Positions 19,119 through 61,096 of a stretch of 64,000 bases of DNA are shown piece by piece (positions within the stretch are counted from its first letter, which is position 1; each line of letters begins with the position of its first letter). Origin of the DNA: a bacterium (GTDB lineage: Bacteria > Pseudomonadota > Alphaproteobacteria > Caulobacterales > Hyphomonadaceae); NCBI GenBank assembly GCA_016125045.1, contig WGML01000006.1, forward strand, positions 310,001 through 374,000. The letters run 5' to 3'. The notes under the pieces are model-generated. The model was not told the origin of the DNA and made no database searches. It saw only the letters and a list, made by a program, of their open reading frames with translations. A program made the translations under genes and the position numbers.

Positions 19119-19541
19119 ATGGCGTACTGGCTGGTGAAGTCCGAACCGCACGTGTTTTCATGGGATGATCAGGTGAAGGCGGGACCGGCGGGCGAACCCT
19201 GGACCGGCGTGCGCAATCATCAGGCCAAACTCTATCTCATGGCGATGAAGCGCGGTGACCGCGCGTTCTATTACCATTCCAACGCCGACAAGGCGGTGGT
19301 GGGCGTGGTGGAGGTGGTGCGCGAGGCCTATCCCGATCCTACGGCGGATGAAGGCTCGCCCTGGGTTTGCGTCGACGTCGCCGCCGTGGCGCCGCTGAAG
19401 GCGCCGGTGACCCTCGCCGCCGCGAAGGCGGACAAGGCGCTCGCCGAGATGGTGCTCGTGAAGAATTCGCGCCTGTCGGTGCAGCCGGTGACGGCCGCCG
19501 AGTGGAAGCACGTCTGCAAGCTCGGGAGCGTCAAAGCGTAG
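19119..19541 (+). CDS. EVE domain-containing protein
   Basis: MAYWLVKSEPHVFSWDD...WTGVRNHQAKLYLMAMKRGDRAFYYHSNADKAVVGVVEVVREAYPDPT, canonical EVE fold. Confidence 0.93.
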   Translation: MAYWLVKSEPHVFSWDDQVKAGPAGEPWTGVRNHQAKLYLMAMKRGDRAFYYHSNADKAVVGVVEVVREAYPDPTADEGSPWVCVDVAAVAPLKAPVTLAAAKADKALAEMVLVKNSRLSVQPVTAAEWKHVCKLGSVKA

Positions 19542-19673
19542 CTTGCTGAACACGCTTCAGCTCCCCGGCGTCGCACGGCATTCAAACCGTATGGCGAGCC
19601 AGGAACAGTGGCGCGCTACCCACAGGCACGATAAAGAGATCACAGCCAAGCATCGTCGAACGGGGGTCGCGCA

Positions 19674-21332
19674 ATGAAGTCCTGCTTTGTGATAATGCCC
19701 ATAAAGCAAAAACAAGAAGAGTTCCAGCATTTCTTGTCAATATATAAGCTTTTTTACAAGGAGCCGGTTGAATCTTGTGGTTACCATGTACAACGCGGCG
19801 ATGATTTATCTGACGCTGGATCAATAACAAAAGATATTGTTACCGCGATTGCTCAATCAGATCTCGTGATAGCGGACCTCACCGACCTCAACCCGAACGT
19901 ATTCTACGAACTCGGGGTACGGCACACCCTACGTCGTTATGGGACGATTTTGACTCTGGACGAAGAGCGTTCGCCACACATTCCGTTCAATTTAGCAAAT
20001 CATCGCGTGAAAAAATATCGCTCCGAACTCGCGTATCTCAGCCGGTTCAGAGAGGAACTCATTCGTGCTGTGAACGCCATCCAACAAGGTGCGCACGAAG
20101 GCGCCGACAATCCGGTCCACGAATTTCTCCCGCGACTGCCGATCGATATGGTGCAAGCCCAGCTTGCCCCGGAGGACTCGCTTGTCACCGACAACGCCAA
20201 ACTTAGTGCGCAGCTGCGGCTCTACGAAGCGCGCTTCGGGCAATTGACCGCTCTGGCAAAGTCCGAAGAAACGCCAGAAATGCTGTTCGAAGCAATGGAG
20301 AAAGACATCAAGGAAGGGCGCCACGGCGCCAAGGTGTTTGAAGACATCACAGCGGCGTTCACATCAAAGGACGTGGGCGAATTCGTTACCGCCACACGCA
20401 AGCTGATGTATGTGAGCCGCTTTCCTCCAACCGTGAATCAGATTCTCGAAATCAGCCGAATGGCGAGCGTCCGCGACCTGGCACCCGTCTCCCGGGTCGT
20501 CATCGATATCGGATTGCGGTTCTTCCCCTCAAACGAAAAGCTTCTAGTCGCGCGGTTCGCATCCGGACTCCAATCTCAAGACCAGCAGGCTCGGCTACAG
20601 GCGATCGAAGATGCGAGTGAGTATGTCGGCCTCGTCTTTGAGGGTGAATCCTGGCGAGCAACGTCCGACTTCGCTGATCTCCCGCAGCTAAAAAAGCAGA
20701 TCTTGTACTATTTGTTGGACGCCTTGCGCGCTGAGCGGCGTTTCACGGATGCACTGAAGCTTACCAAACTGATGTACGCGTCAATGCCGCACTCCTCTCA
20801 GGTGATGCGAAACTACGCAAGAGCGCTAGAAGATGTGAATGACATTGGCGCTGCGCTTCCTATGTTCAGGTCGTCCATCCTCGCAAAAGACGTGGACGAC
20901 ACAAGCGTCAGTTGGTACGCAGCTACTCTCAGTAACAATGCCCGGCATGTCGACGCGGTCGAGGGTTATTTACTTGCATGTGTAATGGATCCAAATGACG
21001 GTCATTATTTCGCAGCTGTTGCTCATTGCCTGACAATGACAATTAGTGCAGGAATGAGGCAATTGTCGCCCCCCCGAACGAGCCCTCTAGACATTTCAAA
21101 GCAACTTGTCCTTGAGTTCGTACGTGCCGCGTTGTCGTGCGAAAACGCAGCAGCGGCACAAGACCGGATCAGGACCGCCATCAGTCGTGCAGAACTCTCG
21201 CTTGAGGGCCTTGATCGATCACAAGGCCTTGGGCGCACCGCTCGCGAACAACTTGCACGGTCGAATTATGATACTTTCGCGAGCGGCCTGACCCGATCCG
21301 ACGTCACGCCTGAAGGTGAATCGACGCACTGA
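19674..21332 (+). CDS. Nucleoside 2-deoxyribosyltransferase/TIR-like N-terminal domain fused to TPR-like helical region; candidate conflict/defence protein
   Basis: MKSCFVIMPIKQKQ...YHVQRGDDLSDAGSITKDIVTAIAQSDLVIADLTDLNPNVFYELGVRHTLRRYGTILTLDEER...IPFNLANHRVKKY; C-terminal helical repeats; much lower GC than flanks. Confidence 0.7.
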   Translation: MKSCFVIMPIKQKQEEFQHFLSIYKLFYKEPVESCGYHVQRGDDLSDAGSITKDIVTAIAQSDLVIADLTDLNPNVFYELGVRHTLRRYGTILTLDEERSPHIPFNLANHRVKKYRSELAYLSRFREELIRAVNAIQQGAHEGADNPVHEFLPRLPIDMVQAQLAPEDSLVTDNAKLSAQLRLYEARFGQLTALAKSEETPEMLFEAMEKDIKEGRHGAKVFEDITAAFTSKDVGEFVTATRKLMYVSRFPPTVNQILEISRMASVRDLAPVSRVVIDIGLRFFPSNEKLLVARFASGLQSQDQQARLQAIEDASEYVGLVFEGESWRATSDFADLPQLKKQILYYLLDALRAERRFTDALKLTKLMYASMPHSSQVMRNYARALEDVNDIGAALPMFRSSILAKDVDDTSVSWYAATLSNNARHVDAVEGYLLACVMDPNDGHYFAAVAHCLTMTISAGMRQLSPPRTSPLDISKQLVLEFVRAALSCENAAAAQDRIRTAISRAELSLEGLDRSQGLGRTAREQLARSNYDTFASGLTRSDVTPEGESTH

Positions 21333-21418
21333 GCGAAGCTGCTCATCTACGGCTACTTAGGCCTCGTTTGACCGTTTCCTTCCGCGATCGTCGACTCCAA
21401 AGCATAGATACGATCGCG

Positions 21419-22987
21419 TCAGCCGCCCGTCCGCTTGGCGCGGCGCACCTCCAGCCGGTTGAGCGCATGGACGTAGGCGCGCGCCGAGGCGACGAGCGTG
21501 TCCGGATCGGCCGCCTTGCCGCTCGCTACAAGCCCGCCCTCTGACAGTCGCACGAGCACGGTCGCCTGCGCGTCGGTGCCCTGCGTCACGGCCATCACCT
21601 GATAGAGTTCCAGCACGGCCTCGTGCGGGGCGAGCTTGCGGATCGCGTTGAACACGGCGTCCACCGGACCGTTGCCGGTCGCGAGCGCGGTCGATTCCAC
21701 GCCGGCGATGCTGAGCGTGAGTTCCGCCTCCTGCGGTCCCTCCGTTCCGGCGACCACCCGAAGGCGCTTCAGCGCCATGCGCTCCTCCGCCCCCGCCATC
21801 TGGTCGTCCACGAGGGCGATGATGTCGTCGTCGAACACGTGCTTCTTCTTGTCCGCGAGGTCCTTGAAGCGACGGAACGCGTCGTTCAGCGCTTCCTGAT
21901 CAAGCTCGTAGCCAAGCGCCTTCAGCTTGTCCCGGAACGCGTTGCGGCCTGAAAGCTTGCCCATGACAAGCGAGGTCGACGCGACCCCGACATCCTCGGG
22001 ATTCATGATCTCATAGGTCTGGGCGTTCTTCAGCATCCCGTCCTGATGGATGCCGCTTTCGTGCGCGAACGCGTTCTTGCCGACGATCGCCTTGTTGTAC
22101 TGCACTGGAAACCCGGTGATCTGGCTGACCATCCGCGAGGCGCGCGCGAGCTTGCTGGGGTCCACGCCGGTCTCGAACGGCAGGCTGTCGGCGCGAACGC
22201 GCAATCCCATCACGACTTCCTCGAGCGCGGCGTTTCCGGCGCGCTCACCGAGCCCGTTGATCGCGCACTCGATCTGACGCGCGCCGCCGATCACTCCGGC
22301 GAGCGAGTTGGCGACGGCGAGCCCCAGATCATTATGGCAATGGGTCGACCAGATGACCTTGTCGGCGTTCGGGATCGTCTCGATGAGCCGGCGGATCAGC
22401 GCGCCGTATTCGGCCGGATGGGAATAGCCGACCGTGTCCGGGATGTTGATCGTGCGCGCACCGGCGTTGATGGCGACGTCGATCGCCTTGCAGAGAAAGT
22501 CGAACTCGGTGCGGGTGGCGTCCTCCGGGCTCCATTCGACATCGTCGACGAGGTTGCGCGCGTGCGCGACCGAAGCGCCGATCGCTTCGAGCACGGCGTT
22601 CTCGCCCATGCGCAGCTTGTGTTTCATGTGCACGGGGCTGGTCGAGATGAAGGTGTGAATGCGTGGGCGACGCGCCGCACGAACCGCTTCGCCGCAGCGG
22701 TCGATGTCGGCGAGCCCGGCGCGCGCGAGGCCGCAGATCGTGACGTCCCGGGATTGGGCGGCGATGGCGCGCACGCATTCAAAATCGCCGTCGGACGCGG
22801 CCGGAAAACCCGCCTCGATGATATCGACGCGCATGTCTTCGAGGAGGGCTGCGAGTTCGATCTTCTCGGCGATCGTCATGGAGGCGCCGGGAGACTGCTC
22901 GCCGTCGCGCATGGTGGTGTCGAAGATGAGCACGCGGTCGCGCGCGCCGGCGGCGACGGAGGGGCTCGATCGGGTTTCGGAAGTCAT
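21419..22987 (-). CDS. leuA: 2-isopropylmalate synthase
   Basis: RVLIFDTTMRDGEQSPGASMTIAEKIELAALLEDMRVDIIEAGFPAAS; start at MTSETRSS. Confidence 0.97.
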   Translation of the reverse strand: MTSETRSSPSVAAGARDRVLIFDTTMRDGEQSPGASMTIAEKIELAALLEDMRVDIIEAGFPAASDGDFECVRAIAAQSRDVTICGLARAGLADIDRCGEAVRAARRPRIHTFISTSPVHMKHKLRMGENAVLEAIGASVAHARNLVDDVEWSPEDATRTEFDFLCKAIDVAINAGARTINIPDTVGYSHPAEYGALIRRLIETIPNADKVIWSTHCHNDLGLAVANSLAGVIGGARQIECAINGLGERAGNAALEEVVMGLRVRADSLPFETGVDPSKLARASRMVSQITGFPVQYNKAIVGKNAFAHESGIHQDGMLKNAQTYEIMNPEDVGVASTSLVMGKLSGRNAFRDKLKALGYELDQEALNDAFRRFKDLADKKKHVFDDDIIALVDDQMAGAEERMALKRLRVVAGTEGPQEAELTLSIAGVESTALATGNGPVDAVFNAIRKLAPHEAVLELYQVMAVTQGTDAQATVLVRLSEGGLVASGKAADPDTLVASARAYVHALNRLEVRRAKRTGG

Positions 22988-50177: not shown

Positions 50178-51332
50178 ATGGCCGACGGATTTTCACGACG
50201 CTTGTTCCTGCGCAGCGGCGCGATGGGTGGCGCCGCCGCCCTCGCCGGCGCGTGCGCCTCCGTGCAGACGACACAGCCCGCGGTCGCCGCACCGACTCCC
50301 TCAGCCGGCGCCGCTCCGAGGCCGCATCCCCTGTTCGGACCGAAGCCGGGCGTCGCCCTGCTCTCGCGCAACGAAAACCCCTACGGACCGAGCCCGAAAG
50401 TCGTGCCGGCGGTGGCGGAGGCATCGGCGCTCGGGGCCTTCTACGCGGACACGGGCTATCTCGCCTCGATGATCGCGGAGAAGAACGGAATCGCCCCTGA
50501 GCAGGTCAGCCTGTCGACCGGGTCCGGAGAAGGGCTCGCAGCGGTCGCGATGGCGTGGGGCGCGAAGGGCAAGATCGTCGTGCCGACGCTGTTCTGGGAA
50601 ACGACCGTGCTCTACGCCGAGCGAAAGGGCGTGAAGGTCCAGCGGGTGCCTCTGACCGCAGACTGGGACATCGATTTGGCCGCGATGGAAGCTGCGGTCG
50701 ATGACAGCGTGTCGCTGGTTCACATCTGCAATCCGAACAATCCGACAGGCAAACTGCTCGACCCGGCGGCGCTGCGCGCGTTCTGCCTGCGGGTGTCCAA
50801 GAAGGCGACGGTGATCGTCGATGAGGCCTACAACGAGCTGACCGACGATCCGGCCGGCAATTCGATGATGGACCTCGTTCGCGCGGGCGAGAATGTGATC
50901 GTCGCGCGGACCTTCTCGAAAATCTACGGCATGGCGGGCATGCGGATCGGCTACATGATGTCGTCGCCCGCGCACGCGGAGCTGATCAACGCCCATGTGA
51001 TGTCCTGGATGGGAGCCCCGCAGATCGCCGCCGCGGTTGCGGCCTACAATGACGAAGATTTCCTCGCCTTCTCCAAGGCCAAGGTCGTCGAGGCCCGCGA
51101 AATGGTGAAGGCGGCGGTGAAAGCGGCCGGCCTGTCTCACCTGCCGGCTGAAACAAACTTCCTTTACGTCAAGGTGCCGGACGCCGCAGCGCTCCAGAAA
51201 GCGATGGAAGCAAAGATGATTTCCATCCGCGGGCCGTATGGAAAATTGACCCAGTGGTCGCGCGTATCCATGGGCCGTATCGAAGATGTCGAGCGGTATT
51301 GCACCGCGTTGAAGGAGTACTACCAGGCTTGA
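50178..51332 (+). CDS. Tat-signal PLP-dependent aminotransferase (histidinol-phosphate aminotransferase-like)
   Basis: SRRLFLRSGAMGGAAALAGACAS twin-arginine signal; CNPNNPTGKLLD; TFSKIYGMAGMRIGY PLP-Lys region. Confidence 0.88.
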   Translation: MADGFSRRLFLRSGAMGGAAALAGACASVQTTQPAVAAPTPSAGAAPRPHPLFGPKPGVALLSRNENPYGPSPKVVPAVAEASALGAFYADTGYLASMIAEKNGIAPEQVSLSTGSGEGLAAVAMAWGAKGKIVVPTLFWETTVLYAERKGVKVQRVPLTADWDIDLAAMEAAVDDSVSLVHICNPNNPTGKLLDPAALRAFCLRVSKKATVIVDEAYNELTDDPAGNSMMDLVRAGENVIVARTFSKIYGMAGMRIGYMMSSPAHAELINAHVMSWMGAPQIAAAVAAYNDEDFLAFSKAKVVEAREMVKAAVKAAGLSHLPAETNFLYVKVPDAAALQKAMEAKMISIRGPYGKLTQWSRVSMGRIEDVERYCTALKEYYQA

Positions 51333-51377
51333 ACATCTCTCCATCCGGATGCAGCCGGATGTCTCTGGGAAGACCTG

Positions 51378-51408
51378 GGGCGGAGCGCAAACTCCGCCCG
51401 ATTTTTTT
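51378..51408 (+). terminator. Intrinsic terminator downstream of the aminotransferase
   Basis: gggcggag-cgcaaa-ctccgccc followed by gattttttt. Confidence 0.88.
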
Positions 51409-51664
51409 GTTGTGCAGATAGAAAACAGAGCATTCGGATCCGTGATCGGACTCTTGAGATTTAGATACTTTATCTGAACCACAGTATATCGAGCATCTGG
51501 GCGCCATTATTTAAAGCGCTCGACACGATAACTTGCACCCAAAATCGGCATGCGAATAAAACGCGGCGTTTCTGTCATCGGTCTCGTTGCACGTTGCGGG
51601 GCGGCTTGGTCTCTCGGTCGGTGCGGTGGGTGATCCCTGCAAGCCACAGACAGTGAGGTGCAAC

Positions 51665-54076
51665 GTGACCGATTCCCGTAGACTGAAATGGGCCCTGACC
51701 GGGATTGCCTCCGCGACGGCGCTTCTCGCGCTTCTGCCCGCGCATGCACAGACCGCCGCACCGGAACCGCAAACCGCCCAGGGGTCCGGCGACATCGTCG
51801 TCATCACCGGCCGGCGGCTGTCCCAGGCGGATGAGGCGGTCGGCGTCGACGAGGCGACCAACACGATCGCGGTGACGCGCGAGGCCCTCCTGTCGGCCCC
51901 TGCGGGAATATCCGGGCTGAAGATGCTGGAGCAGCTTCCCGGCTTCAACGTGCAGACGGACGGCGCCCTCGGGCTCTACGAGTTCGGCAACTCTGTCACC
52001 GTGCGCGCCTTCAACCTGCAACAGATCGGCTTCGTGCTCGACGGTATACCGATGGGCCGCTCCGATGCGTTCGGCGGCAGCCCGATCTTCCGGTATGTCG
52101 ACAATGAGAATCTTGGCGCGGTGATCGCCTCGCCAGGCGCCGGCGATGTCAGCCAGCCGAGCTATGCGTCGCTTGGGCCGATCGTTGAATATCGATCGAT
52201 CGACCCCTCTGACGAATTCTCCGCGACGGTGTCGCAGGCGTTCGGCGACTTCAACCTGAACCGCAGTTTCGTGAAGCTCCAGACCGGCGATGTCGGCGGG
52301 TTCTCAGCCTATGTCAGCCGCTCGAAGACCGACAGCGACCTGTGGCGCGGCGGCGGCTTCATCGACCGCGAGCACCTTGAGGGCAAGATCCGCTACGAAT
52401 GGGACTCGGATACATCCTTGACCTTCAACTTCGTCTCGAACGACTTCTTCGACTACGACTCGCCGTCCTTCACCCGTGCGACCTACCTGTCGACGACGCC
52501 CGACAACAACGGAGAGGTCGGCCGTTTTCGGGGCTACGCCCGAACGCTGCCCGCCCTCCCGCTCGGTCCGCTGCTCGATTACCCTGGACAGACCGGATAC
52601 ACGAACACGGGCTTCACCGATTACTTCGAGGACCGCATCAACGTCCGCGAGGACCGCCTCTACGGTCTCAATTTCAAGACGGACGTCACCGACGCGATCG
52701 ATGTCTCCGCGACGCTTTACTTCGAGGACAAGGACGGCTTCGGCGTCTCTCCGGACAGCTATTCGAACACACGCGCGATCTTCCTTCGCCAGCAGCAGGC
52801 CGGGCTCGCGGTAACCGCGCCGCGGGGCGTCCAGTACGGCGTTTCCGGCGTGGGTGGGGAGCGCCAGGGCGTGGTGCTGAAGGGGGCGTTCCAGATCGCC
52901 AATCACACGCTTGAAGCCGGCGTGTGGCTTGAAAATGACGACTATAATCGCACCCAGCTTCGCCTGAATCATGCTGGCGGGGTACAGGTCGGCGCGGTTC
53001 TGCGCAACGAGGTCGCGTATTTCCGGCGCAACTACAATTCGACCCGCGACACGACCCAGGTCTTCATCAAGGACACGGTGGGCCTGCTCGACGACCGCCT
53101 GACGCTCGAATTCGGCGTCAAATCGCTGATGATCGACTACGAGCTGAACGGCTTCCGCGACTTCAACGACTATTCGCGCACCGTCGGCGGGGTCAATGTC
53201 GCGGGCTTCGGGCCGCAGAGAGTCGGAAAAGACTATGAGGACACGTTCCTTCCCATGGTCGGCGGCGTCTACGATCTCACCGGAACCGAGCAGGTCTTCG
53301 CGTCGTTCTCGCAGAACTTCGCCCTGCCCCGCGGCGCAGACGACATCTTCTCGATCGCGAGCAATCCGGCGCTCGGTATCGAGGGGCCCGAGGGCGAGAT
53401 GTCAGACAATTTCGAGGTCGGCGTTCGCACGATCCGCCGATCGCTTTCGGGCGCCCTCGCCGTATTTTACACCACGTTCGAAAACCGGCTGGAGACATTC
53501 ACCAATGAACTCCCCGGCCAGACGGGCGCCACGGAGACCTTCTCGCAGAATGTCGGGGGAGTGACGTCCTACGGGCTCGAACTCACAGGTGCCTGGAAGC
53601 CCGCCGTGTTCAACGATTATGTCTATTTCAACGGCAATATCACCTACAACAACACGACGTTCGACGACGACATCGCCGGGTTTCTCGCTCCCGCGACGCC
53701 GGGCGGCCCCCGGCGGCCGCTCCCGATCTCCGGCAACACGCTGCCCGACAGCCCTGAATGGCTGGTGATCGGCGGCGTGACGTTCGAACCGACAGAGTGG
53801 CTGGTCGCGAACATCTCGGCGAAATATACCGCCGAGCGCTTCAGCAACTTCATCAACACCGAACAGGTCGACGCCTTCACAATCGTCTCGGCCTATGTGG
53901 ACGTCGGCGGCAGCAATGCCCTCGGCCCGTTCAAGGACCTGAAGGCGCGGGTCAATGTCGACAACCTGTTCGACGAGGATGTGCTCGCCTTCATCTCGCC
54001 GTCGGTGAACAACCTCGCCTTCTTCCGTCCGCAAAGCCCCCGGACGGTGTCCTTCTCGATCACGGCGGACTTCTGA
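51665..54076 (+). CDS. TonB-dependent receptor
   Basis: GTG start with GTGAGGTG SD; plug LKMLEQLPGFNVQTDGALGLYEFGNSVTVRAFNLQQIGFVLDGIPMG; C-terminal RTVSFSITADF. Confidence 0.92.
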   Translation: MTDSRRLKWALTGIASATALLALLPAHAQTAAPEPQTAQGSGDIVVITGRRLSQADEAVGVDEATNTIAVTREALLSAPAGISGLKMLEQLPGFNVQTDGALGLYEFGNSVTVRAFNLQQIGFVLDGIPMGRSDAFGGSPIFRYVDNENLGAVIASPGAGDVSQPSYASLGPIVEYRSIDPSDEFSATVSQAFGDFNLNRSFVKLQTGDVGGFSAYVSRSKTDSDLWRGGGFIDREHLEGKIRYEWDSDTSLTFNFVSNDFFDYDSPSFTRATYLSTTPDNNGEVGRFRGYARTLPALPLGPLLDYPGQTGYTNTGFTDYFEDRINVREDRLYGLNFKTDVTDAIDVSATLYFEDKDGFGVSPDSYSNTRAIFLRQQQAGLAVTAPRGVQYGVSGVGGERQGVVLKGAFQIANHTLEAGVWLENDDYNRTQLRLNHAGGVQVGAVLRNEVAYFRRNYNSTRDTTQVFIKDTVGLLDDRLTLEFGVKSLMIDYELNGFRDFNDYSRTVGGVNVAGFGPQRVGKDYEDTFLPMVGGVYDLTGTEQVFASFSQNFALPRGADDIFSIASNPALGIEGPEGEMSDNFEVGVRTIRRSLSGALAVFYTTFENRLETFTNELPGQTGATETFSQNVGGVTSYGLELTGAWKPAVFNDYVYFNGNITYNNTTFDDDIAGFLAPATPGGPRRPLPISGNTLPDSPEWLVIGGVTFEPTEWLVANISAKYTAERFSNFINTEQVDAFTIVSAYVDVGGSNALGPFKDLKARVNVDNLFDEDVLAFISPSVNNLAFFRPQSPRTVSFSITADF

Positions 54077-60485: not shown

Positions 60486-61096
60486 AGGACTGTCTCCGGT
60501 CTTGAAACACCGTCCCTCGGTTTCGTCTGGCCGTTCTGGGCCGGGTGCTTTTTTTATCGTTGAGCGATGGTCGCCGCCGATTGTCGCGCGGCGATCCCCG
60601 ATGCAGGCTGAATTGTATTCTTGTGTATCAATGCCGAATTGCGCGGGCGCCGCGGCCAGCCGGCGCCTTCGGTTCTTTTCTCGTTCACCCGATGCGCCTA
60701 TATGTAGGTCGTTCTTCGGAACTATGGCGATAAACCCGCGCGTAATAAGCGGCTCGGACCCGGGGGCGGTACCCGGCGGCTCCACCATAACTCCCGGTCG
60801 TTGGCCGGATGGATCGGGGGCCGAAACAGGATCGACGGACGTGTAAAGGCGATGACTTCGCTCGATTGGGCCCCGACAGAAGCCCATTTGCAACAGTTGC
60901 CAACGACAACTTTGCTGAAGGTCAAGCTCTCGCGGCGTAGTGCTGCGCGGGTTTGTCCGAACCTAAGTCCTCTGCTCTAGCAAGCTGAGGCGGGGCCCGG
61001 GGGCGCCTGGCAACAGAAGCCCCCACCTCTTCTCCCAAATGCGTGCGCCGTTGCGTCCCGACGATGGACTGCGGCCGAGGCCCCGTTTCCCGATTG

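What the first reader, a model, noticed from the sequence alone, without database searches (positions are those of the whole stretch)
19674..21332. NDT/TIR-like domain fused to a TPR-like region in an AT-rich insertion: lead candidate for an undescribed conflict or signalling gene
The N-terminus (CFVIMP...YHVQRGDD...ITKDIVTAIAQSDLVIADLTDLNPNVFYELGVRH...IPFNLANHRVKKY) has the Rossmann-like pattern of nucleoside 2-deoxyribosyltransferase/TIR-like proteins. It retains the NxxxxELG Glu that corresponds to the catalytic Glu in NDT/TIR enzymes. About 400 aa of helical, TPR-like sequence follow. The gene's first ~250 bp are conspicuously AT-rich (e.g. tatataagcttttttacaag) against high-GC flanks, which suggests horizontal acquisition. 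Bacterial NDT/TIR-like plus TPR-S (DUF4071-like) proteins have been proposed as immune effectors. This one appears as a stand-alone gene with no recognised sensor or nuclease partner.
Basis: partly seen in the sequence, partly recalled or inferred. Interest (0 to 1): 0.72.

Follow-up and report, generated by a model that had tools for sequence, protein, structure and literature searches.

The report
NDT/TIR-like enzyme fused to TPR repeats
A bacterium has picked up, between two housekeeping genes, a lone gene for a two-part protein: a nucleotide-cutting enzyme domain of the kind used in bacterial immunity, joined to a repeat domain that probably senses a trigger; only three full-length relatives were found, in very distant bacteria, and none is known to have been studied.

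Summary
ORF 19674-21332 (+) encodes 552 aa. Residues 1-137 are a confident NDT/TIR-superfamily domain: AF2 pLDDT 92; best PDB folds MilB, NDT and DNPH1, with TIR domains of SPARTA and TIR-STING lower in the list. The catalytic Glu (E79) is present in 37/37 homologues. Residues ~216-500 are a genuine TPR solenoid, but not TPR-S/DUF4071. The gene is foreign-looking (GC3 0.58 against 0.79-0.88 for neighbours) and has no full-length homologue among about 1,000 genomes of its order, class and phylum; in syntenic relatives the EVE-leuA slot holds other genes. Three full-length homologues (Actinomycetospora, two Clostridia MAGs) show a real, rare, horizontally spread family; one lies beside a SLATT pore-effector gene, another beside a kinase-TIR gene. 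Best explanation: a TPR-gated N-glycosidase, probably an NADase, acting as a single-gene conflict (anti-phage) effector. Phe5 replaces the NDT Tyr linked to 2'-deoxy specificity, favouring a ribo substrate. Activity and defence are inferred, not shown. The domain class is known and predicted to be immune; I found no description of this family and its TPR combination.

The parts
19674..21332 (+). Full gene: NDT/TIR-like domain + helical linker + TPR solenoid, 552 aa
   Evidence: full-length homologues L085, L116, L086
19674..20084 (+). NDT/TIR-like (DrHyd) Rossmann-type domain, residues 1-137
   Evidence: AF2 pLDDT 92.4, pTM 0.89; Foldseek MilB/NDT/DNPH1/TIR; profile vs PDB; PADLOC TIR effector model
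19686..19688 (+). Phe5 codon; replaces the active-site Tyr of NDT/DNPH1 in strand 1
   Evidence: global profile alignment, low-confidence stretch; F in 31/37 and 39/41 homologues, Y in the two clostridial full-length relatives
19794..19796 (+). Arg41 codon, near-invariant
   Evidence: 35/37 and 39/41 sequences
19908..19910 (+). Glu79 codon, predicted catalytic residue
   Evidence: 37/37 in the alignment not selected by pattern; aligned with the Glu of an NDT-family protein
20142..20312 (+). Helical linker, residues 157-213, including a long helix 167-188; low confidence around 165-220
   Evidence: AF2
20319..21173 (+). TPR-type alpha-solenoid, residues 216-500, predicted sensor/oligomerisation part
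   Evidence: AF2, Foldseek TPR proteins, profile vs PDB consensus TPRs
20631..20660 (+). Beta-hairpin within the solenoid, residues 320-329
   Evidence: AF2
20709..21020 (+). Core TPR repeats, about residues 346-449
   Evidence: generic TPR profile comparison
19674..19973 (+). AT-rich 5' part (40-50% GC)
19119..19541 (+). Flank: housekeeping EVE-like gene found in 58 of 61 genomes of the family
21419..22987 (-). Flank: leuA-like gene (2-isopropylmalate synthase, named by reading), syntenic in relatives

Best explanation
A single-gene, horizontally acquired conflict (most likely anti-phage) effector. The N-terminal NDT/TIR-superfamily domain is an N-glycosidase using Glu79, most likely hydrolysing NAD+ (or another ribonucleotide) once activated. 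The C-terminal TPR solenoid holds it inactive and binds a trigger (an infection-derived or partner protein), which clusters the enzyme domains and switches activity on; NAD+ loss then stops growth or kills the infected cell. Shown here: fold, conserved catalytic residues, TPR architecture, foreign composition, non-conserved locus, rare full-length family in distant phyla, conflict genes beside two of three relatives. Inferred: catalysis, NAD+ as substrate, TPR gating, anti-phage function.
For: Fold: N-domain model hits MilB (4.9e-5), NDT, DNPH1, then TIR domains of TRAM, SPARTA and TIR-STING; profile hits DNPH1 at 6e-7. E79 37/37, R41 and D43 35/37. Phe5 sits where NDT/DNPH1 have the Tyr; PMC11204291 states that this Tyr goes with 2'-deoxy substrates and that NADase TIRs usually have Phe or Ala there. 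The same domain occurs fused to TPR-S, AbiJ_NTD5 and Macro domains. Full-length family in Actinomycetota and Bacillota, with neighbours SLATT_3/SLATT_1 (L085) and kinase-TIR (L086). Precedent: DUF4062 TIR-like NADase 'Swarozyc', related to TIR and NDT, with a C-terminal auxiliary domain and abortive NAD+ depletion (PMC13174449). Horizontal acquisition.
Against: No assay. Closest folds are nucleoside/nucleotide hydrolases, not NADases. The two clostridial full-length relatives have Tyr at position 5, so the substrate may differ within the family. L116 is flanked by non-defence genes and so is the window gene. Wider neighbour tallies against PADLOC did not separate near from far genes. The Phe5 register comes from a forced global profile alignment.
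Confidence: 0.55

Rival explanations
1. Signal generator rather than executioner: the NDT-like domain makes an ADP-ribose- or nucleotide-derived messenger that activates a separate effector (a SLATT pore or TIR protein), as ThsB does for ThsA.
For: The closest full-length relative lies about 460 bp upstream of a SLATT_3-SLATT_1 gene on the same strand; an NDT/TRAFs-binding gene on an Agrobacterium plasmid is followed by a DUF4231 (SLATT-like) gene; DrHyd/TIR domains are discussed as signal-generating enzymes (PMC9503650).
Against: No SLATT_3 in the window genome, with the positive control finding it in the Actinomycetospora genome (the window genome is only 82% complete, and other effector types were not searched); no partner gene in the window.
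Confidence: 0.2
2. 2'-deoxynucleotide or nucleotide-pool hydrolase (DNPH1/MilB-like) that depletes or sanitises nucleotides, including modified phage nucleotides.
For: Best fold and profile matches are MilB, DNPH1 and NDT; two full-length relatives carry Tyr at the position linked to 2'-deoxy specificity.
Against: Phe in this protein and in its closest relative; large TPR regulatory part; conflict-type fusions of the same domain.
Confidence: 0.13
3. Non-catalytic or stress-signalling receptor: the NDT-like domain binds a nucleotide ligand and the TPR part signals, as may happen in the N-terminal region of ASK1-type kinases.
For: The full-length profile picks up ASK1 (8qgy) at residues 62-102, E=0.007; TPR-S/MAP3K_TRAF_bd proteins share the domain.
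Against: Catalytic Glu and surrounding polar residues are strictly kept, which a pure sensor need not do.
Confidence: 0.08
4. Passenger gene with no present function, recently acquired and decaying.
For: Foreign composition, single occurrence in its lineage.
Against: Intact 552-codon ORF, conserved residues kept, same length and architecture as relatives with only 24-30% identity over the aligned stretches.
Confidence: 0.04

Closest known systems
[quoted passage not shown]
   Same: Fold, strand-3 Glu motif, profile similarity
   Different: Phe for Tyr in strand 1 (as also expected for a ribo-specific enzyme); fused to ~400 aa of linker and TPR; substrate untested
TPR-S / DUF4071 (MAP3K TRAFs-binding) proteins with an N-terminal NDT-like domain
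   Same: N-terminal domain 28-32% identical to several such proteins; helical repeat C-terminus; some with SLATT-like neighbours
   Different: C-terminus does not match PF20308 or PF13281; compares better with ordinary TPR; longer
Swarozyc (DUF4062 TIR-like NADase), PMC13174449
   Same: Single gene, TIR/NDT-like domain with catalytic Glu, C-terminal auxiliary domain
   Different: No DUF4062 match; auxiliary domain here is a TPR solenoid
AbiJ_NTD-NDT/TIR fusions (PMC3710099)
   Same: Same kind of effector domain, joined to a presumed sensor or antitoxin part
   Different: There the sensor part is an N-terminal AbiJ_NTD; here it is a C-terminal TPR
Human ASK1 N-terminal region
   Same: Weak local profile match in the NDT-like domain (E 0.007)
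   Different: No kinase here; bacterial; homology beyond that stretch not tested
Thoeris ThsB / TIR-STING (Cap12) TIR effectors
   Same: TIR-STING in the fold list; PADLOC TIR effector model
   Different: No ThsA, CD-NTase or STING partner or domain

Membership tests
NDT/DrHyd (TIR-DrHyd-SLOG) superfamily domain | Rossmann-type alpha/beta sandwich | tested here: met
NDT/DrHyd (TIR-DrHyd-SLOG) superfamily domain | Catalytic Glu after strand 3 | tested here: met
   E79, 37/37; aligned to the NDT Glu
Pfam Nuc_deoxyrib_tr (PF05014) | Score above curated cut-off | tested here: not met
   14.1 of 28.8 bits
Pfam Nuc_deoxyrib_tr (PF05014) | Strand-1 Tyr next to the Glu (2'-deoxy specificity) | tested here: not met
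   Phe5 in the global profile alignment; register there is of low confidence
TIR-type NADase | NAD+ glycohydrolase activity, activated by oligomerisation | not testable with these tools
   needs biochemistry
TPR-S / DUF4071 | Match to PF20308 or PF13281 | tested here: not met
   no match at E up to 10; hhalign probability 62% against 94% for ordinary TPR
TPR protein | Tandem 34-residue helical hairpins | tested here: met
   TPR_17 above cut-off in L085
Swarozyc / DUF4062 | DUF4062 domain | tested here: not met
   not among Pfam hits at E up to 10
Thoeris or CBASS | Partner gene (ThsA or CD-NTase) next to the TIR gene | tested here: not met
   neighbours, named by reading the translations, are EVE, MFS, leuA, DedA and the like; no family scan was run on them
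Anti-phage defence gene | Horizontal, sporadic distribution | tested here: met
Anti-phage defence gene | Location in defence islands | tested here: inconclusive
   window: no; 2 of 3 relatives have a SLATT or TIR neighbour; TIR_2 in 5 of 76 near genes, not in the listed part for 78 far genes; PADLOC tallies similar
Anti-phage defence gene | Protection against phage | not testable with these tools
   needs a plaque assay

The most novel reading that the evidence does not exclude
An undescribed family of single-gene immune effectors in which a TPR solenoid, not TPR-S, directly senses an infection cue and gates an NDT/TIR-like glycohydrolase, with a Phe/Tyr switch in strand 1 dividing the family into ribo- (NAD+) and 2'-deoxynucleotide-consuming branches.
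Probability: 0.3. Interest if true: 0.62.

Novelty: new variant of a known kind. Interest (0 to 1): 0.45.

Why it matters
NDT/TIR-like domains are widespread effector-type modules joined to many different sensor domains in bacteria, and relatives occur in human proteins (TEP1 through DUF4062, perhaps ASK1), yet most have no measured substrate. This small family offers a testable case: two members with Phe and two with Tyr at a position linked to ribo/deoxy specificity, on the same TPR scaffold.

Tried and rejected
Full-length homologues by tblastn in 249 order, 387 class and 399 phylum genomes, 72,556 plasmids and 50,697 phage records: only the N-terminal domain or generic TPR. First genome-wide pattern scan with the single protein: nothing; same in viral contigs. 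Profile search in 246 class relatives of the clostridial member and 247 of the Actinomycetospora member: no further full-length member. TPR-S identity of the C-terminus: rejected. Defence enrichment of neighbours by PADLOC, near versus far: no clear difference. Insertion-site repeats: no convincing flanking direct repeats. No promoter or terminator beyond chance. One clade for all four full-length N-domains: two well-supported pairs, single origin neither shown nor excluded. SLATT_3 partner in the window genome: none found. Papers: the 2015 survey of nucleotide-centric conflict systems (10.1093/nar/gkv1267) is not held, so it could not be checked.

Full report
Observation. The ORF is intact, 552 aa, at 19674-21332 (+). 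It lies between an EVE-like gene (19119-19541 +) and a leuA-like gene (21419-22987 -). Its GC is 53.1% and GC3 0.577; the ten neighbours measured have GC3 0.794-0.882, and the first 150 bp are 40% GC.

N-terminal domain. Pfam Nuc_deoxyrib_tr is only a sub-threshold match (14.1 of 28.8 bits). PADLOC's TIR effector model PDLC00733 matches residues 5-138 at 2.3e-8 and matches 36 of 37 related domains. A 37-sequence profile (A3) finds DNPH1/Rcl structures at 6e-7, then NDT and CMP N-glycosidase more weakly. The AF2 model of residues 1-150 has pLDDT 92.4 and pTM 0.89; Foldseek's best PDB hits are MilB, NDT (including Y7F mutants) and DNPH1, followed by TIR domains of TRAM, SPARTA and TIR-STING. E79 is present in 37/37 sequences of A3, R41 and D43 in 35/37. 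In A6 the conservation of N73-L80 is partly imposed by the search pattern, so A3 is the fair count. Local hhalign puts E79 on the Glu of DSGTAWEVG in a PF05014 protein from a relative.

Substrate hint. A forced global profile alignment puts Phe5 on the strand-1 Tyr of NDT; alignment confidence there is low, but P9 also falls on the NDT Pro. PMC11204291 reports that this Tyr hydrogen-bonds the Glu in NDT and DNPH1, goes with 2'-deoxy substrates, and that NADase TIRs usually have Phe or Ala. Phe is in 31/37 (A3) and 39/41 (A6) domains; the two Tyr in A6 are the clostridial full-length relatives, whose sequences read CYVIMP and CYVMMP. So a ribo substrate such as NAD+ is likely for this protein, but not necessarily for the whole family.

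C-terminal part. The full-length AF2 model (pLDDT 81, pTM 0.55) gives a long helix 167-188, a helical solenoid from 216 to about 500 with a beta-hairpin at 320-329, and a low-confidence tail. Foldseek lists TPR proteins. The four-sequence full-length profile matches consensus TPR structures around residues 346-449. TPR-S (PF20308) and MAP3K_TRAF_bd (PF13281) do not match it, though they match six other proteins carrying the same N-domain. hhalign of the C-terminus gives 62% probability to TPR-S proteins and 94% to ordinary TPRs. A pTM of 0.55 means that the packing of the enzyme domain on the TPR part is not known.

Distribution. Searches of 249 order, 387 class and 399 phylum genomes, plasmids and phages gave only N-domain or generic TPR matches. 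An HMM of the C-terminus, built from these four, finds no other full-length member among the 253 loci held. About 490 further genomes in the classes of L116 and L085 gave none. The scan was not exhaustive, so the true family size is unknown. On an N-domain tree the window protein pairs with L085 (99/91) and L116 with L086 (100/98); one origin of the four is not ruled out.

Locus. The EVE-like gene is in 58 of 61 family genomes. In the seven syntenic relatives examined the EVE-leuA interval holds an ABC-F-type ATPase, a histidine-kinase-like ORF, or other genes, and not this gene (names from reading the translations). The window gene is therefore lineage-specific cargo in a variable slot. No flanking repeats stand out.

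Conflict context. The gene after the Actinomycetospora homologue encodes SLATT_3 + SLATT_1 (2.5e-44 and 3.5e-34); the gene after the Oscillospiraceae homologue encodes a kinase with a TIR_2 domain; the neighbours of L116 that were read or scanned are not conflict genes. On an Agrobacterium plasmid an NDT/TRAFs-binding gene sits before a DUF4231 gene and near TIR and QueC-like genes; on a Pantoea plasmid with phage genes an N-domain gene lies between cI and integrase. Near/far neighbour tallies: TIR_2 in 5 of 76 near genes and not among the 25 families shown for 78 far genes (a single far hit could be hidden); PADLOC tallies are similar for both. The window genome has no SLATT_3 hit; the same search finds it in the Actinomycetospora genome.

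Literature (as read). DUF4062 proteins, related to TIR and NDT, are NADases in a portal-triggered abortive system with a C-terminal auxiliary domain (PMC13174449). DrHyd domains are described as NADase effectors or signal generators (PMC9503650). AbiJ-NTD1 fused to NDT was noted in PMC3710099. I found no paper describing an NDT domain with ordinary TPRs in this arrangement; the 2015 survey of such systems is not held, so absence of a description is not proven.

Verdict. Real, well-defined and probably a conflict effector; the mechanism is inferred by analogy. New variant of a known kind.

Noticed in passing
G000:C2:130053-130526 (L002) and G000:C4:358923-359222 (L003): The same genome carries two more genes with the NDT/TIR-like domain: L002 with the domain C-terminal, L003 with it N-terminal and a different C-terminus.
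   Followed up: partly
L054:5953-6828 (Pantoea dispersa plasmid pESL4.2): An NDT/TIR-like gene lies between a CI repressor and an integrase on a plasmid with phage genes; related domains also occur in Staphylococcus and Streptococcus phage records, so phages themselves carry the domain.
   Followed up: partly
L006, L008, L009, L011, L021 and L088: NDT/TIR-like domain followed by a GDI..D.WVNPENT-type region that looks macro-domain-like by eye; Pfam Macro was matched by one of the proteins scanned (E 0.0024). Macro domains act on ADP-ribose products.
   Followed up: no
window 19541-21419 and relatives L076-L083: The EVE-leuA interval is a variable slot in this bacterial family, filled with ABC-F-like, histidine-kinase-like and other genes.
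   Followed up: partly
window 60692-61031: tmRNA gene, tag ANDNFAEGQALAA.
   Followed up: no
window 50500-54000: Lower-GC stretch (about 60-63%) holding a large ORF at 51587-54073; not examined.
   Followed up: no
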